Shown: in pieces, positions 29,561-60,580 of the stretch
How the letters are laid out: every line of letters begins with the position of its first letter
How positions within the stretch are numbered: the stretch's first letter is position 1
Assembly (NCBI RefSeq): GCF_001411555.2
Contig: NC_049911.1
Location: 186,001-250,000, forward strand
DNA length: 64,000 nucleotides
Source: Juglans regia
Taxonomy: Eukaryota > Streptophyta > Magnoliopsida > Fagales > Juglandaceae
Reading direction: 5' to 3'
Position numbers and translations under genes: made by a program
The notes under the pieces: generated by a model
What the model was told of the DNA's origin: nothing
The model's input: only the letters and a program-made list of their open reading frames with translations
Databases searched by the model: none

Positions 29561-31726
29561 ATGGGCGACAACGATAGACTGGAGGATAGGCCGGGTATTT
29601 TCATAGTCGGATCCTCCAACGTTGGCAAACGGACCCTCCTCTCCCGTATGTTTCTTTTCTTTCTTTGTTGTTATTTTTTTTTTTTTTTTTACTTTATAGA
29701 TAATGGATGGGTGGTGCATGTTAGATCCTCCAATTTAGTTGTTTTCTTCTAATTTCATTGCTTTTACATGGTTCAATTGCTCTTCCATTATTTCTTCGTT
29801 AGTTTCACTATATATATATACTTCTATAATACCTTAACCGCAAATTTAATGCATAATTTAAGAGCTATGTTGTTGCCTGCAGGATTAATGTCTGTGGATT
29901 TCGATGATGCTTGTGATTCATCGTCTGAAGTAGTTGTCCACGGGTGCGATTCTTCAGGATTATTACTATCTACGTTAACTAGTAGTATTACTTTTTCAAT
30001 CATCTTTGGGGCTTTCCAATATCTATTTTTGGTGTTGCGTTGACAGTTTTTTTTATTAACAGCTGGATCATCCACACAAAGTACTACACGGCTGAGGTTT
30101 CTGTATGTATGGCTCATCTTCATGATGGGTTCTCTATTGGGACACTGCCAATGTTCGACCGGTTGGCTGCCTTGGTGATGGTTTTTGATATGAGTGATGT
30201 TAGCCTCTTCCCCCTTGACGTCTTTACCTTTTGTTTTAAATTTCAAATGCTTCAAAGTATGCGATGCATCTTTCCTTTCTTCCATTATGTGCAGCTGTCG
30301 TCATTTGTTGCACTTCAGGATTGGGTAGCTTCCACTGATATTCGGAATTTTGAGATATTATTATGCATTGGTAACAAGGTGGATCTCCTTTCGGGCCATC
30401 CAGCTCATGCTGAATACAGAAGGCATTTACAGAATCTTGGGGACGCCAATTCTGATGCAGAGTTTACCGAATATGGGATTTCTGAATCTGAAGGAAGTGG
30501 CTTGTTGGGGAATGAAGAACTGTCATGGGAGATTAGACGGTCATGTCTGGAATGGTGCAGTGAACACAACATTGAATTCATTGAAGCTTGTGCTTCCAAT
30601 GCTGATTTTGACAAATGTAAAGTCATTCTTTTCCTTGAGTTGCAGTAGTTACCTGATTTGCAATCATTATGATTCCTGATTTTTCCCTTTATATGTTTCA
30701 ATTCAAAATTTTGAATACATAACCAATGAATATTAAATGCCCAGCTCAACCACAAACAAATATAGTTATTACTTCACTATGTTATTCTTAAGGCCTTAAT
30801 ATTATAAAAACTATAAGAACATGATAGACAATTGTCATTTGATGTTACATGGAAGTCATATTTACTAAATTTCTTTTACTGATGGAGAGGTTCAAGGAGA
30901 AGTAGCTAGATATTCTTGTATATCTTGTATTGTTATAACTAATAACTAATATTTGGCATATATTAATATTTGCAACTAATTTGATAGACACATGTATATG
31001 CACTCTGAGATGAAGAAGACATTCTTGACAGGTTTATCGGTTGATGGTGATTCACAAGGCGTTGACCGTCTCTATGGTGCTCTTTCTGCTTATATGTGGC
31101 CTGGGATGATCTTGAAATCTGGCAATCAGATATGTAAACCATCATTGCCTGGAAAAGAAGGTGCTTCAATTACTAAATAATAACAGAGTTCTTCCATTCA
31201 GTTTGAATTCTTACTTTCTAATTACATGGCTAACTTCTTTCCTCCTCTCTGCTCAGAGTTGTCATCAGGAGAATCTGATTATGAATTTGAATATGAAATC
31301 CTATCTGCGGGTTCAGCTGAACCTTGGGATGACACGGATAAAGGATGGGTTTCTGCAAATAGTATTACCTCATTTCCAGATAGGGTGAGTTGTGTCGCTC
31401 AGAATAGATCTGTCATGGAACATGATCGGGAGAATGTACCTGGATCTGATGAAGAAAAGCTGCAGCCTTCAACATCAATGGCTCCGTTGCAAGATGAGAA
31501 TGACCCGGGTGTGATAGCCGATGCATCTGAGAAAGCCACAGAGCCAGATGAGGGCACGCATTTTGACTTTGAGGATTTGGAACAGTTGATGTCTGAGATT
31601 GGGAACATGCGTGACAGTTTGAGATTGATGCCAGATTTTCAGAGGAGGGAAATGGCAGCAAAACTAGCCATGAAAATGGCTTCCATGTTTGGGGATGGCA
31701 GTGATGTTGACGATGACCAAGCCTGA
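29561..31726 (+). CDS. Alpha/gamma-adaptin-binding protein p34-like (AAGAB family)
   Basis: Six exons: 29561-29645, 29883-29943, 30063-30198, 30295-30616, 31032-31160 and 31257-31726. All introns are GT-AG, the frame is kept at every junction, and the product is 400 residues with a TGA stop. The N-terminus has a Ras-like fold: a P-loop-like GSSNVGKRT (residues about 18-26) and a G4 motif GNKVDLL near residue 120. The C-terminal third is acidic (EFEYEILSAGSAEPWDD), then a helical DFEDLEQLMSEIGNMRDSLR segment, the adaptin-binding region. In animals p34/AAGAB chaperones assembly of the AP-1 and AP-2 clathrin adaptors in the cytosol; the plant role is inferred. The start is chosen because the P-loop follows at the normal distance and no in-frame ATG lies upstream nearby. 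It looks intact. Confidence 0.9.
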
Positions 31727-32774: not shown

Positions 32775-32782
32775 GTTCTACT
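32775..32782. repeat. Target-site duplication of the hAT block, left copy
   Basis: GTTCTACT, identical to 52054-52061. Confidence 0.8.
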
Positions 32783-33000
32783 TAGGCCTGTAAACGAGCC
32801 GAGCTCGAGTGAGTCTAGGGTGTGCGAGCTCGGCTCGTTCACTACTCGAGCCGAGCTCGGGCTCGGCTCGTTTATCAACCGGACAAATGTCTGCGTCCGA
32901 GCTCAACTCGTGTAGCACTGAATTGAGCTCGAGCTCGGCTCGAGCTCGGTTTTGTCAACGAGCTGAGCCCGAGCTCGACTCGAGCTCGGCTCGCTTATTA
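32783..33000. repeat. Left subterminal array of the hAT block
   Basis: Dense, imperfect palindromic GAGCTCGGCTCG and CGAGCCGAGCTCG motifs in both orientations over about 215 bp. Such repeats are typical transposase-binding zones of hAT elements. A 61-residue frame across them is compositional. Confidence 0.75.
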
Positions 33001-35031
33001 CAGAATTTAAAGATTACAATATTTAATATAAAATTGAAATAAATGCATCAGTAAAATAATAAATCAAATACAAATTTACATCATAAAACCTTCAAGAGTA
33101 TTATGGCTATGGACCTATGGTACATTAAATTACATTTTTAATTTTTACATCATAATGGAACTAGTGAATAAAAAAATAATTTACAAATTACAACAATAAA
33201 TTATGAAATAAGATACATTATGATAAAAACAATGGGCTATGAAATGAATGAAGTCCTCATTTGTTGGTGAATGGAGCTATAAATCTTGACATTGTTGCCC
33301 TGCAAGCTGCATACACTAATACACTAAAAAAATTGAAGTTATTTTTAATCCTTTACTCAAGTATTGTTAACTTAATAATACTGTCAAGGGATGTTTGACA
33401 GAAAATGCAAAACTTAATTTGCTTAAAAAATCAATGGCATCTCTAACAAATTAGACAGTACAATTATACAATCAATCTCATAAACAAATATGTGCATTAG
33501 GGATTCAGACTCATTGAAATTTGAAATCACCATGACAAAGTCACAGAAGTCAGCAAGATTACCACTGAACANNNNNNNNNNNNNNNNNNNNNNNNNNNNN
33601 NNNNNNNNNNNNNNNNNNNNNNNNNNNNNNNNNNNNNNNNNNNNNNNNNNNNNNNNNNNNNNNNNNNNNNNGATAGAAAAGATATATATAAATAAAAGAG
33701 TGTGTGGTCCGTGGCACAGTAGATAGTTTCCTTGTCGAATGGTTAGGTCAAAAGTACGTGTTTAAATTAATCGGGATTGCGATAATGAAGATAGCCAGGC
33801 TGGCTAGCCTTGATCATATTGCATGTGCCATGAGAAGTATATATGCCGTGGGCGTAGCAACTAGCACGAGACGGTCGGGCAAAAAGACTTTTATTGATTT
33901 TTTTTATACTTTTAAATATAATTTAAAAAAAAAATTATAATATTATTAAAAAATACTAAACTCAATCGGAATTCAACTGTCGACGATTAGTAGCATTTAT
34001 TTTATATATATATATATAGGTGCTTAATTAGTACGTAGAATCATGACATGTTGTTTTTTTAACACGCGATCAATTAATTAAGCAGTTAAGTCTTATAATG
34101 ATGGTCCACCACAAGTGTTCAGATCTTAATTAATTCGAATTTGAAGGACACAAGATCTTAACATAATTATTTGAGTTGATACAAACAGCTTATTCATGGC
34201 CCCACGAACTACCGCGGCAATTTATCTTTGAAGGCAAAAAATTTGAAGGCAACGTGCGCTGTATATATCGCCAATTGATAAATATAAAAAAAAATATATA
34301 TATATATAAAAAATAGTAAATGAGAAGGTAAAAAAAGAAATTTAAACAAAAATTGAATAAAGTATATAAAGTGAAGAAAGAAGTATAGACTTAACTTACA
34401 ATTTAGTGTCTTAATTATTTACGTATATAATCACAACAATGAGAAGTTTAAGAAGAAAAGATTTTGAGTGTTTATAACGTAGTTTGATTTATAGGATGGA
34501 CAGAGAGTACGTTGAGTTTATTCTAACGCAGTTGTCCATGTTGATTCATTTCTGTGTGCAAGTACATAATACATTCATTTTCTAAAACTGTAGTTGTAAT
34601 ATTTGCTAAATATGGTAGGTGCTCCTGTAATAATGAAAAAATATAAAGACATAATGTATTAAATATTCCACCTCGCCTGTTTGTTCTAAAAGATTAACAG
34701 TTATACAATTTAATATTTCTTTTGCTATCAGTTCAAAGATAACAACTGCTATACATCCAGTATCTTCCTCTACTTCTAGATAGACTCGTCAGCTAAAATT
34801 AATGAGAATATTAGTAATTGCGTAATTTTAACAATTACTATGTTATATTTATCATATAAGGAATGATCATTTAAAATGATTTACCGTGGCTAAGAGATGC
34901 TCATGTTTTTGCAATTATAGCACATAAATTTTTCGTTGCAGTCATATCTAGTTGTTTTATTACAATTTGTACGGGACAGGTAGTGAAACTTCAAGGTGAA
35001 GGAGAAGTTGCCAATCTGGGCTGTGGGAGGC
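33001..35031. other. AT-rich interior of the hAT block, no gene
   Basis: Includes a 100-N gap (33572-33671) and an AT run at 34296-34310. No coding frame of substance and no RNA gene recognised. Confidence 0.5.
33572..33671. other. Scaffold gap (100 N)
   Basis: Exactly 100 N; true distance unknown. Confidence 0.99.
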
Positions 35032-35039
35032 CTTAGGCG

Positions 35040-35421
35040 CAATGTTTTGAATACCGTACCGGTCAAGGCACTGGAACGAAATATTTCGATACCAGTACCG
35101 TTTCATGTACCGTTTCGGGATAGTCGATATATGAATAAATTATATATATAAATTATATTCTAAAATAATAGTCTATATACGAATAAATTATACATAAATA
35201 CATATATATATAAATTATAAATAATCTAATCTGAATTGGGGATAAAAAAATAAGTTTGTAGTTTAAAAAAATGAAAAAAAAAAATTAAACGCCGAAATAT
35301 ATGCCGGTTCAGGCCGGTATTTGGGCTGGTACGAAACACATAGGATACCTGTACTACCCACTGGGCCGGTACGAAAAATTTCAGTCGTACCGGCCGATAT
35401 GGTACGAAATTAAAAACACTG
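35040..35421. mobile_element. hAT-type MITE, 382 bp
   Basis: Ends CAATGTTTTGAATACCGTACC (left, from 35040) and GGTACGAAATTAAAAACACTG (right), an imperfect inverted repeat of about 21 bp starting CARTGTTTT. Flanks CTTAGGCG (35032-35039) and CTTCGGCT (35422-35429) match at 6 of 8 bases. Both subterminal zones carry multiple GTACCG/CGGTAC and CCGGTA motifs. Confidence 0.75.
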
Positions 35422-35429
35422 CTTCGGCT

Positions 35430-36880
35430 TCCCTTGAGATTGACTGTGTGCGTCGGTGGCTCACTGTGTATCGTGTATTTCAGATGCGGGTCGTCCTGTG
35501 AGTTATCTCTTTTATATCAAAGCTTCACTCCTTCTTGAATCCTGCGTACTTTATTTATTTATTTACTAACAAAAGTAAATTTATCAATTATCACTATTCT
35601 GCTCACTGTTAAAAAAAAATTATTGCTATCACTAAAAAATAAGAGAATTCAATAAAGAAATGAATTATTACTAATTAATATGTCAAATTTATTTTAAGGT
35701 ATTTGTTGTATTAGTTGGTATGATTTTATATTTTTTGCAATAAATAATTGCTTAAAGTAGGTGTGATTATGCCGTAGAAATGATAGTTCTTGAGAAGTAG
35801 GACAACTACGTAGAAATTTTCTTAAAAATAAATTTATAAATTTATATAATAAGTTAAATTTATTATTTAAAAATATAAAAATAAAAATTTATAAATCATT
35901 TGGAAATACATTCCCTCAGCTTCTTAAGATGTTATTTAAGTTAACTGTTTCATCATTTGGTGGGGTTCTGTACTTCTATTGTATGAAATTATGAATCATC
36001 TAATACAATTAAACGATATCTATATTTCATTTTTCTTTTCTTTTCTTTTCTTATTTTAAGAAAAAAACCAAAATCATAATGGTTTCTAATATGCGTTGAA
36101 ATGAATTAAGTGCAGAAAATAATTAATGTGGGCATGCATCGTTTAGGTTGAATTAAAATCAAAGTGAAGAATATAAAATTGAGAGCAGATATTTCATCTT
36201 TTTAAAAAAACAAAAAATGAAGATGATTCCAATAGCTCTAGACCTTGGACTCACCATTCGATAAAATGAGGGAACCAAAAAAATGAATCCAATAAAGTAA
36301 GAGTAGTAGTATATCCTCGAGGGACGTAGCTCGAGAACCCACCGAGAAAGATAGAAAAAAGTTTTTTAATTTTTTTATTCATTTTTTTATATTCTTAAAT
36401 ATTTTTTGAAAAATAAAAAAATTCACAACATTACTAAAACATACTTATTTAATCACTAATTAAAAAAGAAAATGAATTGGAACACAAATTCGAGACCCAC
36501 ATTCGGTGAGTCTAGCATTTTTCATAAAGTAATAAATAAGGTGTAGTTTAGCACTCCTCTGTAATATAATTTTTTAAAAATATAAAGAGATTCTTTCAAA
36601 AGTAACTTTTTTTTTTATTCCTTATTTTGTATTTTGTTACATGAATTATGGAGAGGAAATTATTTATCATTATAAACCTTTTAAATTAATTTCTCTCTTT
36701 TGTTATTGATTTTCTATTAAAAAATATATTATTTAAATGATATGAAGAAAAAATAGATAAATTGATATATAGTAGATTGTAAAAATTAATAAATGAAAGA
36801 AATAAATAAATTTTGATAATGTATCTATAGAAAAAAAAAAATCCATTAAAGCTGCAGAGTTGATTATTTTATTTGATCTA
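35430..36880. other. AT-rich non-coding stretch
   Basis: No gene. A segment at 36335-36535 shares the AAAATTCACAA..TTA..ACTAATTAAAAAA pattern with 25590-25660, suggesting a common AT-rich MITE-like family. The rest shows nothing. Confidence 0.45.
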
Positions 36881-37739
36881 TTATTGACATTAGAAGAAGA
36901 GAAACTTGTGAGAGAGAGAGCGTGAGGTGGAGGAACACCCGTGAGAGAGTGAGAGAGCGTGGGGGAGCTGGGTGGCTGGGCTAGGCATGGGGGTGGCTAG
37001 GGGAGGTCTTCCTTGGGAGGAGGAGCTTCTGGTGGTGGTGCGGTGGCCGTGGGAACGACTGACGGCGGTGCTAGGAGGAGAAACCCGTGGGTTTCATGTG
37101 TGGCCTAGGGAGGAGCTACGGGGTCCGAGTCAAGGGGAGGAGGAAGGGGGAGGTTAGGGGAGACCCTTGGTGGTGCTCGGTGGTGCTGGAGGCTGAAGAC
37201 AACGGCGCCACGGTCGTGCGAAGTGAGGAACCCGAGAGGAGAGAGGGGCTCGCGTAGGGGAAGAGGGACTGCCGTGAGGGGCTGGGTTTGGTGGGATGGT
37301 GCTTGCCGTAGTGAGGGGGAGCTGTCGTGGTGGTCGATGACGTCGTTGGTGCCTCACGGAGGTGCGGGGTTGCAGAGGGCGAATCGGTGAGAGAGGGAAG
37401 CTACTTCGGGTGGGGGAGATAGAGACTTGTGGAGGCTGGGTTCGTGAGAGGTGGTCGCAAGTGGAAAGGGGAGCTTGTGCGGTGGTGGCTGGCGACGAGC
37501 GACGGTGAGCTGTTGTGGCTGGGAGGAGCCGAGAGAAACGCAAGGGGAGAGTGGTTGTCGTCTAAGGGAGAGGGAATACACTGAGCAGAACGAAAATTTG
37601 GGATAAAAGCAGGGGCAAAACGAGAAGAAAAAATATTAGACGAAAACACTGTTCACACCTCATTCGCACTTTATATATAAGTATATATATATATATATAT
37701 ATATAAACTCGATCCTACGAGTATGAATTAACTATGTAC
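36881..37739. repeat. GA/G-rich LTR-like fragment
   Basis: GAGAGAGAGCGTGAGG-type sequence resembles 8380-8500 and the complement of 25830-25980. It is followed by G-rich sequence and a TA run at 37685-37705. The Pro/Ser-rich frames on the minus strand here arise from composition. Copia element C begins directly after it. Confidence 0.45.
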
Positions 37740-38028
37740 TGATAGCAGACAGCCCACACCTGAGATCATGCATGGGACAACGCTCGTAAAGGCAACTATG
37801 ATTCTATCCCAGAAAAAGCTCAATCAACTAAGCCATCAAGAATAGAATCCTCACTATAAGGAAGTTGAATGTTGGTTAAAAGTCTCCCTACAGCTTATAC
37901 AGTATATACTTTCATTTCCTAGCTTTATACGAACACTTTGAGAGTATATAAACCCCTACTATACAAATCCCCATTATGATGAAAAATACTCGCTTTATTT
38001 AATTTGTTCTTTACTTTTTTTTTTTTTT
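37740..38028 (+). repeat. 5' LTR of copia element C
   Basis: Begins TGATAGCAGACAG and includes a TATAAACCCC promoter-like stretch near 37948. It ends in a T run before the primer site. The 3' boundary is uncertain by a few bases. Confidence 0.75.
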
Positions 38029-38112
38029 ATGATATCAAGAGCTAGGAAAGGCTAACGTTGTTTCCTCCAATTTTTCTTCTCCCCTTTTGATCTCTTCATC
38101 AACTTTGAGCAC

Positions 38113-41100
38113 ATGGGCTATCCCTCCTTTAATGTTGGAAACTTTGTTACCCTTCGCTTAAACCATGAGAATTATCCCTTCTGACATGAGCAATTTTTAA
38201 TGTTGGTAGAAAGCCAGGATCTTGTTGGTGTTCTCACTGGCACAAGATCAATTCCTGCTCCTTTTATTTATGATCCTGAAGGCTCTAATGATGGACATAA
38301 GGCATTGAGTCCTGCTCATCCTAACTAGAAGCAATTTGATCGATTACTTAGAGGATGGCTTATTGGAACTCTCACCGAAGAGGCTCATGGTCTCGTCATT
38401 GGCATCGACTTAGATGCAAAAACTTGGACAACAATTCGTGACGCCGATGCACAATCCTCTCAAGAACGTGAATTTAAGTTGCGTCACAAACTCTCCTATA
38501 TGTGTAAGTCCCCTAAACTCTCCTTAGACGACTACTTACTTAAATTTAAGCATCTTTGTGATAATCTTGTTGGGATTGGGAAACTTGTGGAAGATAAATA
38601 GAAGGTTTTCTCCTTACTCAATAGTCTTGAAGCTCAATATGAAGGTTTCACTACTGCCATGCTCAAACCTCTAATGCCCTCTTATGCTGAAGTTATGCCT
38701 CTGTTGTGAAGCTTTGATATTTGCCACAAACTTCATGCCACTGAACTAAGTAATCATGTGGCTTTCTATGGTAACAAACAAAAGGGGTCTAATTACGCCA
38801 ACCACAAAGGAGGCAGTTATAACACTAACCAGAACTTCTCCTTCAAAGGCAAAGGTTTTCCTCATTAAAATAATTGTGGTTCTAGTGGAAACTCTCACAC
38901 TGCTGCCAATGGTGGTCCTCCACAGTGTCAAATTTGCAACAAATTTGGACATCACGCCCTTAAATGCTGCCACCGCTTTGACAAAGCTTTTCAAGACACT
39001 GAGATTCTTGAAGCTCTTGCAGCTCTTACCATCCACAACTCCACCAACCATGAGTGGATGATCGACATTGGAGCCCGGCTCATATGATTTCTAATGCAGG
39101 ATCGAGCAACCAACCACGTCTTGCTGAGGGGCCAGAAGAAGGGTAACCTTTACACCATTCAAGCTCCACATCAAGCCTTATTTTCAACTCATTTTCAAGT
39201 TGTCAATCCAAATTTATGGTATCAATGGTTTAGCCACCCGCAACCTACAACAGTTGATGTTTTACAGTCACTTGGTTTAATAAAAGTAGTTGGCAAAAAT
39301 AATTCTTCTAGTTGTGATAGTTGTCAAATTGGTAAATTTAGTCGTTTACCTTTTCTTTCTTCATCCGACAATAAGTATGGTTTACTTTGTACAGTGTGAT
39401 CTTTGAGGCCCTACCCAAGTACAATCATTGGATAAATTTTTGTAATATACTGTTTTGATTGATGATCTTAGCCGTTTCATTTGGCTTATTCTCTTAAAAA
39501 AAAAAAAACTTGATTTCTATGATTCATTCCGTGTCTTTATGAAATATGTCTCTTGTTAATTGTCTACATGGTGTTTCAATCTGATGATGGCAATGAGCTT
39601 TCTAGCAATCTTTTTGCTCATTTTCTTAAGGATCAAGGTATTCTACATCAAATATCTTATCCTTACACCCTGGAACAAAATGGCATTGCCTAAAGACGTC
39701 ATCAAAATATCCGGGAACTTAGTCTTACAATGCTCTCTCACAGTGGTATGCCTAAACATTTTTGGGTGGAAGCATTTTCTACCGATGTGTTCTTAATCAA
39801 TGGAACACCCTCTTCCACTCTTGGTAATGACTCTACCTACTTTAGAATATATGGTCGACGCTCTAATTATCTTTCTCTACGTGTTGGATCCAAATGCTTT
39901 CCTTATCTCTGCAAGAAGAAAACTAATAAATTTGATCCTAAATCCTTATCATGTGTGTTTATGGGTTATAGTAGCAAACATAAAGGCTATAAATGTTTTT
40001 ATCCACCAGCCAGAAGAATGTTTGTATCATGACATATTGTTTTTTATGAAAATCAATTCCCTTTCAAAAATTTTGCCAACCTTCATGCTCAATCACACCT
40101 CCCGGGCACCATCTTTGTCTTTATAGAATGGTTGGACTCTTCTGCGACATGCCATATGACTATGCCTCATATGTAAAATGCCTCCAATTTTGCAACTAAT
40201 TTTCCTTCTACTCTTGCTAATGTCTCTTCTCCTTAGGTTGCATTCCCAGAAGCCCAAGTTCCTTCTACCCTATCTATTGAAATTCCCATTGCACCATCTC
40301 AATCATCATCATCTCCTCTTTCCACTTCTTTAACGGATAGTTCTTTGACCACCATGGCATCACCCATAGATCCTCATTTCTCCACTGTCCCAGACCCCTC
40401 ACTATCTCACTAAATGCTCACTCATCTTCAAGCAGATATTTGAAAACCCAATCCCAAGTATGACAACTTACACACTACTTTGTCCTTGCCACAGGTACCT
40501 AAAAACATATGTGCTGCCTTAAGCCATGAAGTATGGAATCGTGCCATGCATGAGGAGCTTGCTGTTTTGGAGAAAAATAATACCTAGACTTTGGTTCTTC
40601 GCACCCCTGACATGCACATTATTGGAAATAAATGAGTTTTTAAACTTAAGCTGAATGCTCATGGCGAATTTGATTGTCTTAAGGCTTGCTTGGTCGCCAT
40701 TGGCTACCATCAAATAGATGGTGTTGATTTTCTTGAAACATTTTCTCCAGTTATTAAATTTGGTACTCTTAGAATGGTTTTATCCATTGCTCTTGTGTGC
40801 AAGTAGGAAATTCGACAGTTAGATGTCAAAAATGCTTTTCTCCCCGGCTACCTTCAGGAATATGTTTTCATGGAGCAACCGTCGGGGTTTCTCGACCCTT
40901 CCTACCCCAATCATGTTTGGAAAATTAAAATGTGCTTTATATGTCTTAAAACAAGCTCCAAGGGCTTGGTTTGATTGTTTTAGTTCCTTCTTATTTGAGT
41001 TTGGTTTTTCCTGTTGTTTATTTGACCCTTCTCTATTTTCTTTTTGATCCCTTGATGCAACTATGTTCCTCCTTTTATATGTGGATGGCATTCTTCTTAC

Positions 41101-42013
41101 TGGTTCCGATGCATCAGTAATGAATCACTTTGTTCAAGCTCTACATGGTGAATTTAATATGAAAGACTTAGGACTTTTGCATTACTTGCTCGGTATACAA
41201 CTTACTCATAATTCTCATGGTCTTTTTCTAGCACAGACTCAATGTCCTTTGGATATCTTACGTCGGGCTCAGATGACAGATTGTAAACCAGTTGTCACTC
41301 CCATCCAAATCTAAGGACTTGGGCGCTTCTCCTTCTTTCTCGAATCCTAAGCTCTATTGAAGTCTAGTTGGGGCCCTATAATACCTCACTCTCACGCCTC
41401 CCGATTTGGCTTTCAGTGTCAATCTTGTTGCTCAATACATGCATAATCCATCCCAGGCTCATTATCAAATGGTCAAGCAGATTCTCCAGTCTCGACTTTC
41501 AGCTCTTTGCCAAATCGACACTTGACCTCTATGCCTTTGCCGACGCTAATTGGGCTGGATGTCAGGAAACACGCGGCTCCACCACCGGTTTTTACACTTT
41601 TTTCAGTTGAAATTGTATCTCCTGGAGTGCCAAAAAGTAGCATAACGTGTCCCGCTCGAGCACTGAAGTCGAATATCAAAGTCTTGCTCATACTACTGTC
41701 GAGATGACTTGGTTAACTACTTTACTTCATGATCTAGGCGTTCCTTTAGACAAGACTCCCTTGCTCCTTTGTGATAACCTTAGAGCCCTTCATCTAACTT
41801 ATAATTCTATCCATCATTCTTGCAGTAAACATATCGACATCGATTACCACTTTTTGCGAGAACGTGTTGCCTTGGACCTCATTCAGACACGTCATGTTCC
41901 TACATCTCTTCAGTTAGCTAATAGGTTCACCAAGCCCTTATCGCACGCCCATTTGATCGGCGTTGCAACCAAACTGAACTCTCAACAATGGCTTAGTTTG
42001 CGCGCCCAAGGGG
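38113..42013 (+). pseudogene. copia gag-pol of element C, decayed
   Basis: Gag starts at about 38113 (MGYPSFNVGNFVTLRLN) with several stops. A CQICNKFGHHALKC zinc knuckle lies near 38932-38975. The GAG-pre-integrase (WYQWFSHPQ, CDSCQIGKFSRLPF) spans 39210-39360. Integrase is at 39590-40030, reverse transcriptase at 40510-41310 and RNase H at 41510-42010 (DANWAGCQETRGSTTGF; SSTEVEYQSLAHT; DYHFLRERVALDLIQT). In the RT the catalytic motif reads YVDG (near 41078-41089) instead of YVDD, losing one metal-binding Asp. Multiple frame changes and stops also inactivate it. Confidence 0.87.
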
Positions 42014-42041
42014 GATGGGGTGATAATAGACAGCCCACACC

Positions 42042-42141
42042 NNNNNNNNNNNNNNNNNNNNNNNNNNNNNNNNNNNNNNNNNNNNNNNNNNNNNNNNNNN
42101 NNNNNNNNNNNNNNNNNNNNNNNNNNNNNNNNNNNNNNNNN
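42042..42141. other. Scaffold gap (100 N)
   Basis: Exactly 100 N, inside the 3' LTR of copia element C. Confidence 0.99.
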
Positions 42142-42471
42142 AATTAAGAGATAGAGTTAATAAACCAATGGCAAGATGAGATCATAAGCTTTCTATCAAG
42201 ATGTGATCATTGGGATAAGGATTGAGCAAGTGCGATTATAAAAATTGAATAAAATATAGAATTAGAAATATTATATACATATATAAAAAATCACAAAGAG
42301 ACAAAGTTAACAAACCAATGACAATGGTGGAACAAAGTCATATTACGGCCAATGTAGATTGAGACGTAGCATCATTTCTTGAAATTTTTTTGACAACAAT
42401 TGAATTTGAAATTAAGTATGGTGAAATAAATATAACACAATATATTATGAAATAAAAACAAAAATAATGAA

Positions 42472-43838
42472 TCAAGAACAATTACCAGATACAGGGTGAT
42501 CACCACCCTCCTCATCGGCCTCCTCAAAGTCTACCACTTTCAGAATATGAATTGAGACAATGAACTCTGAAATGGATTCAAGATGTGCCCTTTGGTGTTA
42601 AGGCAAACTCTGAGGCTATGGTAGAAATAAATATGACCAAAATATTGCGGGCTCTCTCTCCAAGTATGGGATACTTGATGGAATTGACTTTCCACCAAAT
42701 TAAGATATCAAATTGCCACGTAAATAGGTGCATCTCTGCTGTCAAATATCTATCCAACTACGATTGGTCGTCTGAAGCCTTATAAAGCTTAGAAACTTGC
42801 TCATATCTCTCAGTCCACCTACATATTTTCGCCATCTTGAGTTTGGGAGAAGGCGATGTAGTAGGTGTAGGTTCTGGAACATTAACACCTCTAAATGCAG
42901 CAAACACATCAAACAATCTACTGAGCCCTTGTTGCAAAATGACCTGACCATGTCTTCCCGTTGGTGATTTCCAAGCCATATAACGTGCCATCAATTTTGT
43001 ACTACAGGTTAAGAACAATAGCCACGTATAGGAAAATATTGATCCTACTCAAATCTCTCAAATACTTCTCATACTTAGTCCTCATGCCCAATGCCATATT
43101 CCACAAAGTAGGATCAACACTCCTGTACATTTAATCCAATTGTTTTTTCACCTAACAAAATTGCTGATAATATTCATTGAATGTAACGTACAAAGACCTA
43201 GAAATGTGCATGTCACCTCATAGAAAAGCCAAAATGTTTTTGCAAAAACCCTTCACTACATTCCAATTATCATCCTTGGGCCACCCCAATCTCCCATCAT
43301 CCTCAAAGTTTTTGACCTATTGCATGTCCTCATCACCAATGAGGCCAAAAGTCTCTATATTGTTGGGCCATCTCCAACATCAAGAATGTTGAGTTCTATC
43401 TTGTAGGAATATCAAGACACAACCCCTTCTTGCATTCAATACCTACAATACTAGCAGACACCTTGAATTTCTCAAGCCTAGTTGGTGAAGATCTCACACA
43501 AACCTCACCACACTTCCATTGAAGTCAAATCTCTAATCTAGATTGACTATTTTATTGTAAATAATATCTAATTGGACTCTTATTGCGTTGTTCTTCTAAG
43601 TTTACATTCAATTGAAATGTACCATGTCTTTTGTAGTGATATCCATACACCTTACTACAATGGTTACACTTGGCTTATGGGTTATTGGGGTCACCATCCT
43701 CTAACTTGGTGAATGATTTCACACAACTGAATCGGGTTTATTCTTTGGTGGATGCATAGGTGTAGGGATAGTGGTACTAGGGGTAGAGGCAGGGTAGCTA
43801 GCACTAGTGCTAGCGTTCGGACTTCACTCATTATCCAT
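42472..43838 (-). pseudogene. hAT-family transposase, decayed
   Basis: The minus strand starts with ATG at 43838 (MDNE then a stop). A BED-type zinc finger follows at about 43640-43730 (FTKLEDGDPNNP, then CNHCSKVYGYHYKRHG, giving Cys2 and His2 ligands). A mid-to-late RNase H-like region at about 43020-43190 reads RSLYVTFNEYYQQFC and DPTLWNMALGMRTKYEKY. The C-terminal dimerisation domain at about 42540-42720 reads FDILIWWKVNSIKYPILGER and IFISTIASEFAL. About 500 bp separates the BED finger from DPTLWNMA, much less than the several hundred residues normal for the family, so much of the catalytic core is deleted. Several in-frame stops exist. It lies inside the hAT-bounded block and is probably that element's own transposase. 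Confidence 0.82.
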
Positions 43839-44249
43839 GGAGTTGGCTCACAAACTCACAAATACCTAACATGATGTAAAAATTACATAACAATTAAAAT
43901 CATACAATCATACAAATTAAAATTCATTGGAGTTTCAAAAGTTTCAAGATTGAAACCCCAAATCATATTAGGTTAAGGGTTTTAGTATGAGCCCCTAACC
44001 TAATTTAAGATTTCAATCTGAAATCCTAATTTATATTAGGATTTCATATTGGAATCTTAAATTAGTCCCAAATTGATAAATTTCAACCAACAATTCAAAT
44101 TATAACGCACAAATTCCACTCCTCCACAATACAAAAAACATAATCTTATCTTCCAAATCCATTAAAAAATCTCATCCTCCATAGTTCAATCCATTGGAAA
44201 ATAAAATAAAAAAATTCGAGAGGGGTTTCAGAATACTTACGGATCATAT

Positions 44250-44704
44250 TAGGGCCCGTAAGACTATTGGTCCAGATCAGAAAATCCGACAGGACCGAAT
44301 CGATAGTCTTATTAGTCGGTCTCGGAGTGTGGTTTTTTTGGACCGGACCCAGCCGAGACCAACCGAATGTATATATATTTTTAAATATTTTATATAAAAT
44401 ATTATTTTATATAGTAGTTGTATAAGTTAATTATGTAATTTTCATCCAAGGGATCACCATTAACCATATATACAATACAATTATTTAATATTCATTAACC
44501 ATATATATAATATTAAAGAGATCACTTAATCTTAGTTTTACTAATTTAATTAAATTTGTCATAATTTTTTCTGTCAAAAATATATATAAAAAAAAGGAAA
44601 AAATATTGCATTGTAGGAAGAGAGGAGGTTTGGATTAACCATTAACCAATATTAACCATATTTTCAATCCACGACCCTTTAGGACCAGACCGATTATACC
44701 CCTA
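44250..44704. mobile_element. hAT-type MITE, 455 bp
   Basis: The left end TAGGGCCCGTAAGACTATTG and the right end (minus strand TAGGGGTATAATCGGTCTGG) form an imperfect inverted repeat. Flanks GATCATAT (44242-44249) and GATCAAAT (44705-44712) agree at 7 of 8 bases. Subterminal GGTCCAGA / GGACCGGACC motifs link it to the larger MITE at 62684-63402. Confidence 0.78.
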
Positions 44705-45001
44705 GATCAAATGGAGAGAGGGGGTTTGGTGCGAGAGAGGCAAGCTGCTCCACTTTTATCAACATGTAAGGCCGGATAAGAGCATTAGCATTGGCTTCAT
44801 CAAAATTTGATAAAAAATTTGAAGAAAAATACATATTTTTCATAAATTCAAAACCTCTCTATCTATAATCTCACATTGGATTAGCCATTGGATTCATCAA
44901 AATATAATATAATATTTTTTTTTAATAATAATATTTTTTTTTCATATTTTACAATTACACTAACCATATGTACATTAATAATTTAATTTGATATTTAAAT
45001 T

Positions 45002-45173
45002 GAGAAATTCTATTTACAGTCCTCAAGTGGGGACTGCATGTGCATGCACATTGTTAAATGAGAGAAAACATCATTTTAGGAGGGATAATTTTGTAATTTT
45101 AAAAAATTTTAAAGTTAAAATAGCCTAAGCTTGCATTGCCGTCCCCATTTGGGGACTGTACTTAGCATCGCTC
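45002..45173. mobile_element. MULE-type MITE, 172 bp, perfect 9-bp duplication
   Basis: ATTTAAATT occurs exactly at 44993-45001 and 45174-45182. The terminal inverted repeat of about 38 bp is imperfect: left GAGAAATTCTATTTACAGTC, right (minus strand) GAGCGATGCTAAGTACAGTC, both continuing into a TGGGGAC..GCATG block. A 9-bp duplication with long inverted repeats is characteristic of Mutator-like elements. Non-coding. Confidence 0.85.
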
Positions 45174-45182
45174 ATTTAAATT

Positions 45183-46819
45183 ATTGTTTCCCAACTAATT
45201 TTTTTTTCTCAACCTAATTATCCAACAAACACATTTCGCAAACTAATTTTCAAACCTAAACTAATAGTCTCCTGTATTTTGTAATAAAATAATAAAATAG
45301 ACTTATGAATAATGCATCTTCAAATATATATGAAGATGAAACTAAATTTCCTATCACTCAAAGCTTGAGTTTTGAGTTTTATCGAATCCAATGCCAGCGT
45401 CTTTATCGAATCAGATCAAGGCACGCATGTTTTGCAGTGAATTCAGAGCAGTATTCCTGGACAGCACATATAGGATGGTTGACAACATTTTGTTTTTTTC
45501 ATTTTTAGTTGTAATATTCAGAAAGTACTAATTTCTTTCCTTTTGTAAATATTTGGCCATTACTCGGCTCATTCATTCTTTATAAACTTCATATATAAAG
45601 AGTTATCTTCTCGGCTCTGGCTCAAATAATAAAGCAAGTCATCAGACCCTTGATCTTCAAAATTACTTTCTAGTGCTAATACGTGCAAAGTGGCCGGGAC
45701 CCAATAGAAATATCCCAACATTCTTAGAATAGGTAGATTCATGTAGACATGATTATTAGTACTAGTGTTTGCAAGAGATTAATCAACATAGTTATGTACA
45801 TAAGTAGATTAATACATAGACGAGTCATGAAGGATGAAGCTAGGCGCTAATTACAAGGTGAAATCAAACATGTGCTGCATGCAGTAATATTTCTTTTCTT
45901 CCCCATTATCGTCCGCAACAAAATTTCCTTTGACATGCATTAAACCTAGTACATATGTGAGCTAACCTAAGTACTGACCTACAAAATGAATATCAAACGG
46001 CCTGGACATACGTGATCGTATTAATGATGCCTGGAAATTAATATGTATTCGTGTATGATTATTCATATACGTACGCTCACGTACGTAGTGGATTAACATA
46101 GAGAAGTGATAGCAACATGCAGTTGACAAAATTAAGATGTTACAAAAAGTAGTACGTCAGATCCTACAAGAACTTACATGTATAAGATCATGAAAACCAG
46201 TACACAACTTAATTCATCATGCTTTAATCTTAGGGAATTAAGTGATCAATGAATTATATGTGTCTTTCAAAACATTATACATATATATATATATATATAT
46301 ATGCGTTTTGTTTTTCTGGAATCTCATGTGTTTTGATGGGGGAAGGTAAAATGGAATTGGCATCTGCAGTACTACTACTAGAACGGTCTAGAGATCAAAG
46401 TATAAAAAGGGACTATAATATTATTACACGTACATCTGTTAATTAGTTGGATGGAGAGCTACATTTTAGAGAATGACATTATGATAAAATAATTGCCATG
46501 ATCCTCATTGTCAATTATATCAAGGAAAATGGGAATTACTTGATCAATAGCGCGGTTTATACTCCTCGCATCAGGAAAAAAGTGAGAAAAAAGGACAAAA
46601 CATAATTAGCATAATGGACAAGTACTACAACGACTAATTTAATGTTGATAATCACCAACTTTGTCGTTGAGGCAGATGTCCCTTTAATTTGTTTGGATGC
46701 GAGAATGAAATCTTTTTTTTTTTTAAAGAAGAGGCGAAGGGTATTCCAAGTTTATTGATAGTCCTTACTTGTGATAGAGAAAAATTGTAGTTACAAGCAG
46801 ACACATGTGAGATGTAATG
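45183..46819. other. AT-rich stretch within the hAT block, no gene
   Basis: Short frames at 45305-45508 and 46249-46446 show no domain. TA run at 46279-46303. Nothing else recognised; this part looks less repetitive than its surroundings. Confidence 0.45.
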
Positions 46820-46912
46820 TTAAGATATAAAATAAATAATAAAATCGATATCTTCTCACCAACTAATTAAATAATTGGAACAAGTAGTGATTTCACATGG
46901 TATCAAAGCAGA
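46820..46912 (+). repeat. copia LTR end plus primer site, fragment
   Basis: The sequence TTGGAACAAGTAGTGATTTC is followed by ACA and TGGTATCAAAGCAG (46899-46912), a near match to the tRNA-iMet primer site. This is the 3' tip of a copia LTR and the first bases of an element interior; no gag follows. Confidence 0.55.
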
Positions 46913-47119
46913 TATCTTAATTTCGAATCCTGTAAATGTAGACACATTTACAATTCTGTAAATCTTTTTTATTATCATCTGAATAAAATCTTTTATAATT
47001 TTGTAAATGTAGGCATATTGTTGAGCCACTTAAATCTTGTATTGTATGTGATTGATTCCACTTTTTATTACTTTTTCTCAATTGGTTCCTAACATTTTGT
47101 ATGTCTTGGAACGAGTAAT

Positions 47120-47219
47120 NNNNNNNNNNNNNNNNNNNNNNNNNNNNNNNNNNNNNNNNNNNNNNNNNNNNNNNNNNNNNNNNNNNNNNNNNNNNNNNNN
47201 NNNNNNNNNNNNNNNNNNN
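47120..47219. other. Scaffold gap (100 N)
   Basis: Exactly 100 N. Confidence 0.99.
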
Positions 47220-48770
47220 ACCCATCGTCCTGTCGTCTTGGTAGTGCCAGTGGAAACGTCCTGTCGTACTATTAACATGGAGGTTCTGGTGGAATCTTCT
47301 TCTTTGGAACCCTTGAGGGGGTTGGGGTCGACAGCAGGCCTCTTTCTGGAGTATCGATTCCTGAAGGGTGGGTGTTGGCTAAGCTTGATGCCCATCGTCC
47401 TGTCATCTTGGCAGTGCCAGTGGAAATGTCCCGTCGTACTATTGACATGGAGATGCTGGTGGAATCTTCTTCTTTGGAACCCTTGGAACTGTTGGTGAGA
47501 GACCCCTTGCCTGAGGTCTGTGTTGTGTTGCCCGCACCACTCGGTGCCCATGGCGTGCCCCAGGAAGTTGGTGACCTTGCTGCCCTACTTCGGAAACTTT
47601 TTACATTCAGGGTGCCTCAGCGGATTGATGCGGGGTAGCGTCCCTTGGGTGTAGATATGACAATCTCCTCCACTTCTACTGCTCGTTTTGCTGTTGGTAG
47701 CCATGCTTTCGAGGACGAGGCTCGCTTAGGGGGCCCCGTCTTTGAGGTCACGGTAACGCCTTATGCAGCGTCTTTGCTTGCTGCAGTGGGATGGGACGAT
47801 CTAGCTCTTGTGGCGGGTGGAGAGGAGCCCGAGCCATTCAGAGGCTTAGATCTCGTTATTAAGAGGGCAGTCGCCACAACCTCTAGTAACCGTGTCGCGG
47901 AGGTGAAGCACCAAGCGGAAGGTGGGCTCCTTCTGGATGTTGTAGTTAGTAAGGGTTTGGCAGGCCTGTGCGAAGATTTGCTTGTTTAGGCGGGAATGAT
48001 TGCTGAAGAGGTGGTCCCGACTCATGTAGAAGGCATCGAGGGTCAGCCTTCGATCCTCACGACTGGGGAGGTTGCTAACGGAGCCTGTCGAACTGAGGCG
48101 ACCACATAAGCGGCCAATGGAGAGATTTCGGTGGAGGTCATCCCCCCTTTGGTCTGACTGGAAACTGGGAGTGTCACGCAAATGCCATCAACCAGGTCGT
48201 CAAGTTCTTATTTGACTTCTTCCACAAGGTTTTGCAACTTCTTTTCCCGTCTTTTTCCTTTTTTTTTTTTTTGCTATTTTGCTAGATTCTTTTTATTGAT
48301 CATTCCATGTTGGCTCCTTTTATTGTCAAAGCTCCTCTCATATGACAACCTTCATCGTGGATGGCCAAGAGGCCGTTGAGTAGGAAAACCAGGCCCTTCA
48401 TGCGATGACCCGAACTGCTTTACGGTATGCTCGTGGCTAGGGGGATGAGAGGGAATGGCTGAAGCAAGAGCTGAGGAAGGTCTGGCTTGCACTAGAGGAG
48501 GGTAGCAAGAAAATTGATAAGCTTAGCCACTGTCAGAAGGAGCTAAAGGAGAAGGCGAAGAAAGACGCCAAGCGGATGGGGGCTTGGAGCGACTTGTCCC
48601 AAGTGCAGGACGTTGCCTCCCGCTTGGACAATTAGCTGAAGTTGGCCGTGGGTGTTCACAATGCCATGTGGGCGCATGGGTGTTCTGAGGGCCTGCGAAA
48701 ACGAAGAAGAAAGAAGCTAGGAGGGGCCGGCCTTGGGCTGGGAAGTTTCCGAAACCAAAGTCAGTAGAGT
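47220..48770 (+). pseudogene. Non-autonomous gypsy-type gag-like protein remnant
   Basis: Plus-strand coding-like sequence in several frames: 47372-47638 (LDAHRPVILAVPVEMSRR), 47645-47989 (AFEDEARLGGPVFEVTVTPY) and a charged coiled-coil-like segment at 48430-48640 (WLKQELRKVWLALEEG, KELKEKAKKDAKRMG). The layout resembles the plant putative gypsy-type transposon protein family with a C-terminal coiled coil; no protease or polymerase follows. Stops at several points and the LTR-like sequence behind it indicate a dead non-autonomous element whose left part is lost in the gap. The family assignment is inference. Confidence 0.5.
47221..47485 (+). repeat. Two direct repeats, 170-bp spacing
   Basis: CCCATCGTCCTGTC..TTGG to GGAACCCTT occurs at 47221-47315 and 47391-47485 with about 8 differences over 95 bases. 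The spacing of 170 is not a multiple of three, so the two copies cannot both be read in one frame. Confidence 0.8.
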
Positions 48771-49293
48771 ATTTTAGAAATTTGTAAATAATGAGATAAT
48801 CTAGAGATCAGAGTCAGAGATAGTTTTTTCGTACTTCGTACCAGGAAATTGCTATTTATACCGGGAGTCTAAGGGGACAGATCGTGCCTGCCCCCGTAGA
48901 GTCCATATCCTTTTTACTGTTCTTTTTGTTAGAGTCCTTTAATGCGGCGTGCCTCTTCGACTGTGTCATTAATGTGGCATGTTGCTTGGGTAGTGGTGTT
49001 ATTAATGCGGTGTGGTTCCCTGATTTTCCTTACTCTGTTGGTGTCTTCGATGGTCTATTGATGTCACCTTGTCAAATGATCGAGGGTCCCCCTTACTTTC
49101 TGCTCGTTCATGTGGGCAGGTACTCAAGGGCAGGACGTTGTTCGAGAGAACTCCAAGACGGAGAGTCCCATCCCCCTATAGTCTGCTCCCATATGGGGGT
49201 TGTGTCCTGGAGAGTCTACCTGTAGGCCGGGTTGTGGGGCTTGTTTGTTTTGGACTGAGCTTTCTTTTCTTATTTTCTTAGTTGCTTCTCACA
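48771..49293 (+). repeat. 3' LTR of the gag-like element
   Basis: Related to the solo LTR at 6131-6779: TTAATGCGGCGTG, TTATTAATGCGGTGTGG, AGTCCCATC and the end GTTGCTTCTCACA. The left boundary is not defined. The frame at 48884-49225 is not credible as a gene. Confidence 0.5.
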
Positions 49294-50501
49294 GGCTCAA
49301 TAAAAAGGGAGAAAAACCCCTTACAGCGCTAGTACTAGATCTAGTATATAAGCGATCTTAATAACGTTGTGTGTAATCTCTATACAACATTAGCTAGGCA
49401 GCAATCAACAAATAAGCCACCTGCATAAAGAGAATAAGGAAGATTGATCTAGCCTTAATATATGACATAATTATTAATTAATTAGCCTAAGCATAAGTGA
49501 AAGAAAGAAATAAAGAACCCACATGTAGAAACAACAATAATTTGCAGATTTCCCAACGCTTTACCGAGATATGCGACTCGAGACTAATTATGATTTCAAG
49601 GTTACCCAAATTAAAGATATAATTAATTTTGATTTAACGAATAAAAAAAGAGGAAAACTCTTGTAATTAGTAGAAACGAACGAGGAAATTAGGAAAGAAT
49701 CGAATATTGAACCACAAATGATCTCAGGATAATCTAGCTGGTACGGCATGCACGATGGGCTCTACTGGATCAATTGGCCCAGGAATTCTCCTGCCCCAAT
49801 ACATTTTCTTTCTTCAGCTCTTACGTGTTTTTTCTTTTTCACTAACCCATATGGGCCATATCATACTCGTGTCCTTGTCTAGTTAGCTACATGCAATGAA
49901 TTATGAGGTGGTTGTTAATGAAACTGATCATTCATTAGTTATTGTTAATTGGTTAAAAATGTTCAAAGGTCACAGCTTGAGCTTGGAATTAAACATGCTG
50001 ATCATCATCTCATGTGGGCCGGCCGGGGAGATATCTTAGCCTAATTCCGTACGTTCATAAATATATTATATATATATATATATTTATATATATGAGTTTA
50101 GTTCAAATATACGAGTTTTGCTACAAATCAGCCACTGTTCACATCACACACCCCACACCTATATCTTTTCATAGGGTGTGAAGCTATTTTTTATGGGATA
50201 TATGGATGTTTTTCATAAGGTATATGGTGTAGAATGATGAATAGTGATTAATGAGAATAACTTTCATTAATATATATAACAAGCAGCTCGCTCATCACAT
50301 GGTAGCTAGCTAGGCGTCTAATTAATTTGTTGTTGATAGTATGTGATTACCAATTAAACTTTCGACTCTAGATGATCAGCTCATGAGTTTTTTTATAATT
50401 CCTTTTCTATCCAGTTTGATTTTTTTGTTGCAATATATATAGTGGAAGGAATATTCTCACTACCCATTAGGCTGGGCCTAGTCCACCTCTGGGAGGCCCA
50501 A
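49294..50501. other. Non-coding stretch with a possible MITE
   Basis: No gene. Around 50105-50270, ACTGTTCACATCACACACC and, in inverse orientation, GGTGTAGAATGATGAATAGTG form an imperfect inverted repeat with GGGTGTGAAG between, suggesting a small MITE; no duplication was confirmed. TA run near 50062-50080. Confidence 0.4.
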
Positions 50502-50601
50502 NNNNNNNNNNNNNNNNNNNNNNNNNNNNNNNNNNNNNNNNNNNNNNNNNNNNNNNNNNNNNNNNNNNNNNNNNNNNNNNNNNNNNNNNNNNNNNNNNNN
50601 N
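50502..50601. other. Scaffold gap (100 N)
   Basis: Exactly 100 N. Confidence 0.99.
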
Positions 50602-50759
50602 TTGTGATGATTGATGAATCAACGGCTTAGATTTGGATTTAAAGATCCAAGGGCCTCAAAAACTCCAAATGTTATACAGCCATACGGGTAGGGGTAGGCT
50701 GGTAGCCTCTCTAACATGTAATAGGAGTAGCAAGTAGGCTGTAGCACGTTACATGATCA

Positions 50760-51835
50760 TGTAACCCATAAGTTTTTTTTTTAACTATTTTAATATTTAA
50801 GTTGTAACAAATGTTATATGCTATAAAATTATATATTAGTATATTATTATAAGTTAATATTTAAGTTATATACTATATTTAAGTTATAGTACAAAACAAT
50901 ACAATGTTATAAGTTATAAGTTATATCCTATAAAACTATATTGTAATATTTAAGTTGTAACACATGTTATATACTATTATAATATATAACTATACTAATA
51001 TTATAATAGTATAACTATAAGTATATAACATTGTCTAACTTTATATTTTATCAAACATTATAATTTATTACTCATGATATAATAGTATAGTTCTATTATA
51101 TATTAATACTATAATACTATTATACTAACATGATAAGGAGATGGTGTAATTTGTAATGTTAAAATGTTATATATTATGTAAGATTATACTACTAATAGAT
51201 TAATAATACTATATAGTTATTAATACACTGCTAATATTGATACACCACCATCTGTATATACTAATACTAATATGATATGTTAATATTATCCATCATCATA
51301 CATAGTAACATATACTAATATCTTATACTAATACACCATCATATTTCTTTCATATTAATATTAGTATATTACTAATATTAGTATATCATATACCACTATA
51401 CATTACTAATAGTATATGAATGTATCATCTTTCTAACACCACCGGTCACCATCTTTCTAACACCAATAATATATTAACATACATATACTAATATACCATT
51501 ACTAATATCAATAGACAATATACCATATTTGAGTTCATACATTTACTAATATGAATATATATATAATATGGACCATATGGTGTAATTTGTAAATTTATAA
51601 TGTCATATATTTATTGTATGTATTCATCATAACTTCTAGTTTTATAAGACTATAAGTTAATATTATAAATTTATATATAGTATATGTAGTGGACTATAAG
51701 TCTATAAACTATAATAATAAGTTAATAACACTAAGTCTACATACTTAATGATGAATATTATAAATTATATACATATCTAAATTTTGGTTATTATGTATAA
51801 TATATTGTATTATTAATTTTATATGTATAAATATA
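50760..51835. repeat. Low-complexity A/T stretch of about 1.1 kb
   Basis: Repeated words such as ATAAGTTATAT, ACTAATATTA and TATTTAAGTTGTAACA without a clear unit; almost no G or C. It directly precedes the right subterminal array of the hAT block. Confidence 0.6.
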
Positions 51836-52053
51836 TACGAGTCGAACTCACGAGTCGAGCCGAGCTTCATACGAGTCTGTTCACGAACATTAATCGAGCC
51901 GGTCGAGCTTTATACGAGTTTGTATCGTTTAATAATCGAGCCTAATTCTGTGTTTACGAACGGCCCATTTAATATTCGACTCGAGTCGATTTCGAGTTTA
52001 GTCGAGTCGAATTCGAGCTGCCTGTCGAGTAGCCTGTTCATTTTACAGCCCTA
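51836..52053. repeat. Right subterminal array of the hAT block
   Basis: CGAGTCGAGCCGAGC, ATCGAGCCGGTCGAGC, CGACTCGAGTCG and related motifs over about 215 bp, mirroring the left array, and ending TTTTACAGCCCTA at the duplication. Confidence 0.75.
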
Positions 52054-52061
52054 GTTCTACT
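52054..52061. repeat. Target-site duplication of the hAT block, right copy
   Basis: GTTCTACT, identical to 32775-32782. Confidence 0.8.
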
Positions 52062-59401: not shown

Positions 59402-60580
59402 ATATATATATATATATATATATCATTTTTCTTGTAAAATTAATAATATCCCACTCAAGGCAAATAACAAGAAACGTTTTACCTCTTAATCGTTAAAAAA
59501 AGAAAAAAGAGAGCAATAACAATAAAAGAAAGGTTCAAATTGACCTAGTTAACTTGCTATGTTTCGTTCTTTTCTTTCCTTTTTCTTTTTGGTTGACACA
59601 TATGGCTCTCAGGGAGAAAATGTTTTTTTCTTATTCATTTGATCGAGCATGGAGTACGTACTACTCAGTACATTTGCAACTGTTTGTTAAGTAAGTATGG
59701 CCTTTAATTACATTAATTTGGGCAGCAAAACAACAATTATTTTCATATTCAACTAACTCGATCCAGTGGCTAATTCCCCTGATCTTTCATGCAGCCGGCG
59801 CCTACCTCTAAGCTTCAATTCGGCACTATACCGTACGTTCATGGATCCCTCGATCGCCCCCAAAACTCTCTACTCTACGTCATGAGCAACAGATCAATTT
59901 TTCTTTTTACTTTTTTTCTCCCTTTGGCTGCAGAAAACAAGATGTGTTATTTTGATCCGTTCATGGATCATTGTCACGCACGCTTCTGATCACGTTCCAT
60001 TTACTACTCTCCAATCTAAACATGGGTGCATGCGCTTTATGAGTTCCATTTTCAGCTCACCCCGTAATATTTCCTAATTTGGAGCATACGAGACATTATT
60101 TCTTTAAAATATTTGTCCCATGAGTGTGAAAGAGAAGCTGCTCATCGTCCGCCTTATTTCATACTACTAGTACAGATCATTCATTATATTGTTGTTCTGT
60201 CTTCCTTTAGCAAAAGAGAAGCTTCAAATAGACAAGTTTCATATAAACTTTTATAAAAAACTGAGTCTCACCTTAAAAAAGTGTAAAAAAAAACTATTCT
60301 TTACTAATAAGATCCACTTTTTTACAAACGACTTATATGAAGCTTTATTAATAATGGAGAAACTTAGGATAGAAGTAGTAGAACAAAGTCGTCGAAATTA
60401 ATATTGTTTAAACAGTAACTTTATGAATATATATGCCTGTAAATGTACAAAGTTACATCGCTTATATATATTTAGGCTTTCAATCCAAAAACTACAATCT
60501 TTCCTAGTAATACAGGTTGAAAAGAAAATTTGATAAAATAGTGGATGATAACCGCCAATGCCATCATCATCAGGGTTCTT
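59402..60580. other. Intergenic stretch downstream of the MLO gene
   Basis: TA run at 59402-59423, then AT-rich sequence without a gene. The part next to 60580 should be the 3' UTR of the minus-strand MLO gene. The frame at 59789-59989 has no recognised domain. Confidence 0.5.

What the first reader, a model, noticed from the sequence alone, without database searches (positions are those of the whole stretch)
32775..52061. A 19.3-kb segment bounded by hAT ends and a perfect 8-bp target duplication
GTTCTACT is repeated exactly at both edges, next to TAGGCCTGTAAA and its inverted partner TTTACAGCCCTA, with matching CGAGCTCGGCTCG-type arrays inside both ends. The outer flanks join into one plausible repeat. 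Inside are a dead hAT transposase, a copia element, a gypsy-type gag with LTR and at least three MITEs. Either one old autonomous hAT was swollen by later insertions, or a very large composite hAT moved its cargo. Typical hAT elements are a few kb.
Basis: partly seen in the sequence, partly recalled or inferred. Interest (0 to 1): 0.8.

Follow-up and report, generated by a model that had tools for sequence, protein, structure and literature searches.

The report
Old plant hAT transposon, nested, gapped
Two matching ends of an old plant jumping gene, with the duplicated landing site it left, enclose about 19 kb of other elements and assembly gaps, which is an ordinary nested-transposon pattern whose size is not yet proven.

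Summary
GTTCTACT stands directly outside two hAT-type ends. The only pair of ends in the window within one mismatch of TAGGGCTGTAAA carries this perfect 8-bp duplication (about 2e-5 expected), and CGAG/CTCG arrays are densest at these two ends. This marks one hAT insertion.

The 19.3-kb size is weaker. All four 100-N gaps of the window lie inside. Only 789 + 1,452 bp are joined to an end without a gap; the other 16,630 bp are placed by scaffolding alone.

Inside are a broken hAT transposase, a degraded copia whose 3' LTR runs into a gap, three MITE-like elements and much unclassified DNA. A 'gypsy gag with LTR' was not confirmed.

Best reading: an old hAT element enlarged by later insertions; the main rival is misplaced middle contigs. 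Maize Ds elements up to 24 kb, several with LTR retrotransposons inside, are published (PMC3260210), so interest is low. The whole-genome test did not complete 12 of 12 times.

The parts
32775..32782 (.). left copy of the 8-bp target duplication GTTCTACT
32783..33000 (+). left hAT end: TAGGCCTGTAAAC plus CGAGC/GCTCG subterminal array
33001..33571 (.). AT-rich DNA joined to the left end without a gap, up to gap 1
33572..33671 (.). gap 1 (100 N)
35040..35421 (.). MITE-like element, imperfect inverted ends CAATGTTTTGAATACCGTACC / CAGTGTTTTTAATTTCGTACC, flanks CTTAGGCG / CTTCGGCT (6 of 8)
   Evidence: limits and matches counted by eye, no chance test
37740..38028 (+). probable copia 5' LTR (start matched to the 3' LTR start at 42020-42041, 19 of 22; end set by eye before a primer-binding-like site)
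38326..42041 (+). degraded copia internal region: gag 38326-38664 and pre-integrase 39187-39336 (both below Pfam's curated cut-offs), SH3-like 39850-40065, RVT_2 40576-41305 across two frames; 3' LTR begins about 42021 and is cut by gap 2
42042..42141 (.). gap 2 (100 N), beginning inside the copia 3' LTR
42470..43840 (-). broken hAT transposase: hAT-like RNase H 43199-42993, dimerisation region 42757-42608, in different frames with stops
   Evidence: outer limits by eye
44250..44704 (.). short hAT-type element, ends TAGGGCCCGTAA / TAGGGGTATAAT, duplication GATCATAT / GATCAAAT (7 of 8), GGTC-type inner motifs
44993..45181 (.). MITE-like foldback, arms 80% alike
47120..47219 (.). gap 3 (100 N)
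47220..48184 (+). broken coding-like stretch of unknown family (one unnamed 148-aa relative); limits by eye
50502..50601 (.). gap 4 (100 N)
50602..51830 (.). AT-rich DNA joined to the right end without a gap
51831..52053 (-). right hAT end: CGAG-type array and TTTACAGCCCTA
52054..52061 (.). right copy of the 8-bp target duplication GTTCTACT

Best explanation
A hAT DNA transposon inserted by cut-and-paste into plant DNA and duplicated 8 bp of target. It later decayed, and other mobile elements (a copia retrotransposon, short hAT-type and other MITEs, and further unclassified sequence) landed inside it, so its two ends now lie about 19.3 kb apart in the scaffold. Shown: the two ends, the perfect duplication, the arrays, and the identity of the copia and transposase pieces. 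Inferred: that the middle contigs truly lie between the ends, that the transposase belonged to these ends, and that the insertions came after the hAT landed.
For: The only pair of ends within 1 mismatch of the consensus carries the perfect duplication. Subterminal arrays reach their highest density at these two ends. hAT transposase pieces lie inside, both on the minus strand. The copia inside has the same LTR start on both sides of its body, as expected of a separate insertion. Maize precedent: ten Ds1 elements of 0.8 to 24 kb, LTR retrotransposons in six of them; a Ds2 of 12.7 kb (PMC3260210 section 13).
Against: Four gaps of unknown size, all inside the segment. 16,630 of 18,871 known bases between the ends are placed only by scaffolding. 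Attempts to link the sequence beside the transposase to the sequence beside the ends gave one weak lead only: a 49-bp AT-rich stretch (51016-51064 against the inverse of 42235-42283, score 51, maximum of 60 shuffles 40; elsewhere in the window up to 42 in that orientation and 49 in the other). A proposed last exon at the left end was not seen in the C-termini of 23 relatives. Much of the interior is unclassified. The copia's own target duplication cannot be checked, because gap 2 hides its far end.
Confidence: 0.6

Rival explanations
1. A short or internally deleted hAT copy (at least 2.24 kb) lies here, and one or more of the three middle contigs (8.4, 5.0 and 3.3 kb) are misplaced between its ends by the scaffolding. 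The ends and the duplication are real; the 19.3-kb size is not.
For: All four gaps of the window fall in this 30% of it; runs of exactly 100 N usually mean unknown size (recalled). Only 789 + 1,452 bp are gap-free with an end. Unclassified DNA fills much of contigs B to D. A complete short hAT-type element with a perfect duplication exists elsewhere in the window (62684-63402).
Against: A hAT transposase of plausible kind lies on contig C. Nested repeats themselves cause gaps, and gap 2 begins in an LTR, as expected of a repeat-caused break.
Confidence: 0.3
2. A large composite hAT (macrotransposon-like) moved as one unit with its cargo already inside.
For: Size is no bar: Ac/Ds macrotransposons of as much as 100 kb (PMC3260210 passage) and of 28 kb (PMC9910405 passages) are reported to move. 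The perfect outer duplication shows the ends moved together at least once.
Against: A macrotransposon of that kind should hold inner ends of the same family. Inside the segment none is within 1 mismatch of 12; 3 have 2 mismatches and 11 have 3, with array counts of 0 to 3 in 220 bp, except one of 7 that overlaps the right-end array. Gaps could hide one. No second copy with the same cargo could be sought (genome search did not complete).
Confidence: 0.05
3. The two ends belong to different elements and the duplication is chance.
For: The arrays differ in composition and orientation, the ends share 11 of 12 terminal bases and diverge after that, and a scan without the hAT consensus finds chance pairs as good.
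Against: About 2e-5 expected for the single close pair.
Confidence: 0.03

Closest known systems
Maize Ds1/Ds2/Ds-l elements with nested LTR retrotransposons (PMC3260210; abstract and other passages seen, sections 9 and 13 read)
   Same: hAT ends, 8-bp duplication, LTR retrotransposons and occasionally DNA transposons inside, total sizes up to 24 kb, intergenic DNA inside some
   Different: other hAT family; here the size depends on four gaps
Ac/Ds macrotransposons and composite insertions (PMC9910405 and PMC3260210, passages seen)
   Same: large DNA between hAT ends with an 8-bp duplication
   Different: those are bounded by ends of two elements and one was seen to excise; no convincing inner ends found here
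Plant RICESLEEPER-like hAT proteins (nearest hits: Carya illinoinensis P0001, P0002)
   Same: hAT-like RNase H and dimerisation domains
   Different: 37% and 36% identity over 77% and 67% of a broken query; the window copy is broken by stops and frame changes

Membership tests
hAT superfamily transposon | 8-bp target duplication | tested here: met
   perfect GTTCTACT pair
hAT superfamily transposon | terminal inverted repeats fitting [T/C]AGNGNNG (PMC6027215, passages seen) | tested here: met
   right end TAGGGCTG fits; left end TAGGCCTG departs at position 5; 11 of 12 bases inverted
hAT superfamily transposon | subterminal repeat arrays | tested here: met
   the two arrays differ in orientation
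hAT superfamily transposon | hAT transposase between the ends | tested here: inconclusive
   PF14372 and PF05699 pieces, but on a contig joined to the ends only across gaps
hAT superfamily transposon | empty site or other copies with the same ends | not testable with these tools
   The genome search 'own' unanswered 12 of 12 times
hAT macrotransposon | inner ends of the same family | tested here: inconclusive
   none within 1 mismatch of 12 inside; 3 with 2 mismatches, without arrays; gaps not covered

The most novel reading that the evidence does not exclude
The whole 19.3-kb block, including retrotransposon, MITEs and unclassified DNA, transposed as one hAT unit, a natural counterpart of maize macrotransposons in another plant.
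Probability: 0.05. Interest if true: 0.35.

Novelty: new member of a known kind. Interest (0 to 1): 0.12.

Why it matters
It is a clean case of how a perfect target duplication can mark one old insertion across tens of kilobases, and of how little of such an element may be physically supported in a gapped assembly. It opens no new question about mechanism.

Tried and rejected
Inner hAT as owner of the transposase: the end at 44704 first looked like the 5' end of a separate transposase-bearing hAT, but a partner end at 44250 with a 7/8 duplication makes a 455-bp short element likelier. A last transposase exon at about 33,290 on the minus strand: suggestive splice sites by eye, but not seen in the C-termini of the 23 relatives; some of those proteins are fragments or predicted models, so this is not a disproof. 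Similarity between end-joined DNA and inner regions: 9 region pairs in 2 orientations, 18 comparisons; 5 exceeded the maximum of their 60 shuffles. Two of the 5 are the two end arrays against each other (28 against 25, 27 against 24), two are right-end AT-rich DNA against contig D (34 against 32, 39 against 34; the latter is a TA-rich run), and one is right-end DNA against the inverse of the transposase's 3' flank (51 against 40). For that last one, other parts of the window score up to 42 in the same orientation and 49 in the other, so I do not rest on it. Contig continuity at gap 2: about 21 bases of 3' LTR, then no LTR similarity on the next contig. Full-text search for the exact end sequence: 0 papers of the held library. 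Searches were seen as listings; papers opened were PMC3260210, PMC6027215 and PMC9910405.

Full report
What is there. The window is plant DNA, judging from its elements and its named protein relatives. At 32775 and 52054 the same eight bases GTTCTACT occur, with no other copy on the + strand; one reverse-complement copy lies at 60377. Directly inside stand TAGGCCTGTAAAC and, inverted, TAGGGCTGTAAAA, with 11 of the first 12 bases shared. The right end fits the published plant hAT end consensus [T/C]AGNGNNG (PMC6027215, passages seen); the left departs at position 5.

Is it more than chance? With ends defined as within one mismatch of TAGGGCTGTAAA, there are 2 ends on the + strand and 1 on the - strand, and 1 pair in the right order more than 100 bp apart; that pair has the perfect duplication, with about 2e-5 expected by a simple calculation. 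At two mismatches it is 1 of 16 pairs, at three 1 of 370 (0.007 expected), at four 2 of 20,183 (0.4 expected). In 200 shuffles one pair of close ends arose in all, without duplication. Against this, a blind scan without the hAT consensus is uninformative: it gives 13 pairs in the window, the outer pair at the lowest listed score, and at least one pair in 11 of 12 shuffles, some scoring higher. The arrays add support: 218 bp at the left carry 11 CGAGC and 13 GCTCG, 224 bp at the right carry 14 CGAG and 1 CTCG, and no 220-bp tile clear of the ends exceeds 6 such motifs, against 28 and 15 at the ends. The two arrays are therefore related but not matching.

What lies between. The ends are 19,271 bp apart, 400 of them N. 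Gaps lie at 33572, 42042, 47120 and 50502, and nowhere else in the 64 kb. Pfam scans of six frames over 32775-42041 and 42142-52061, with stops read as X, found hAT-like RNase H (E 2e-9) and hAT dimerisation (E 3e-9) on the minus strand near 42.6-43.2 kb in different frames. On the plus strand between 38.3 and 41.3 kb they found copia SH3-like and reverse-transcriptase domains, the latter across two frames, and gag and pre-integrase matches just below their curated cut-offs. The remaining hits were weak and below cut-off (DUF2784, E 0.014; PIK3CG_ABD, E 0.058). The copia begins at about 37740; the same start recurs at 42020-42041 (19 of 22 bases) and runs into gap 2, so most of the 3' LTR is hidden. 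Three MITE-like elements sit at 35040-35421, 44250-44704 and 44993-45181. The stretch at 47.2-48.2 kb looks coding but has no significant Pfam match and has one unnamed relative of 148 aa (E 4.1e-21); calling it a gypsy gag is not supported here. The rest is unclassified.

How firm is the size? Gap-free DNA joined to an end amounts to 789 bp on the left and 1,452 bp on the right. The other 8,370 + 4,978 + 3,282 bp are placed by scaffolding only. I tried to tie the transposase to the ends by sequence without success. Of 18 comparisons, 5 exceeded their shuffles. Two of those only restate the end arrays, two are AT-rich matches to contig D, and one is a 49-bp AT-rich match between the right-end DNA and the inverse of the transposase's 3' flank (score 51 against 40). 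Its background in the window reaches 42 in that orientation and 49 in the other. A proposed last exon beside the left end was not seen in the C-termini of 23 relatives. The duplication marks one insertion whatever the gaps hide; it does not show what lies inside.

Mechanism. By established knowledge of hAT elements, the transposase binds subterminal and terminal repeats, cuts the element out and inserts it with an 8-bp duplication. The transposase here is broken by stops and frame changes. Later insertions explain the length. Maize gives direct precedent: ten Ds1 elements of 0.8 to 24 kb, LTR retrotransposons in six of them, a 12.7-kb Ds2, and intergenic DNA inside some (PMC3260210, section 13 read). 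Ac/Ds macrotransposons of as much as 100 kb (PMC3260210, passage) and 28 kb (PMC9910405, passages) show that a large composite is possible. Inside this segment, however, no end comes within 1 mismatch of 12. Three have 2 mismatches and array counts of 0, 1 and 0, and 11 have 3 mismatches.

Verdict. A real hAT insertion, most likely an old element enlarged by nesting (0.6), possibly a short element with misplaced contigs between its ends (0.3). Ordinary in kind.

Noticed in passing
62684-63402: A second hAT-like element, 719 bp, with GGTCCGGTCC-type arrays and perfect TGCAGAAC duplications.
   Followed up: partly
9058-13953: Copia-like ORFs by eye on the minus strand between two direct repeats about 92% alike (9058-9372 and 13642-13953), probably its LTRs; domains not scanned.
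   Followed up: no
55441-56423: Four overlapping register copies of a 300-nt stretch at spacings 171, 171 and 341, so probably a tandem array of about 171 bp.
   Followed up: no
56677-57542: MULE transposase domain (E 4.6e-26) and a FAR1-like match below its cut-off: a Mutator-like or FAR1-type gene or remnant.
   Followed up: partly
31184-31723: ORF with an adaptin-binding p34 domain about 1 kb from the hAT insertion, probably a host gene.
   Followed up: partly
14876-15782: Sugar transporter domain pieces, probably a host gene with introns.
   Followed up: partly
58715-59053: ORF with a DUF4283 domain on the minus strand, often found with retroelement remnants (recalled).
   Followed up: no
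47221-47315 and 47391-47485: A 95-bp direct repeat, 93% alike, directly beside gap 3.
   Followed up: no
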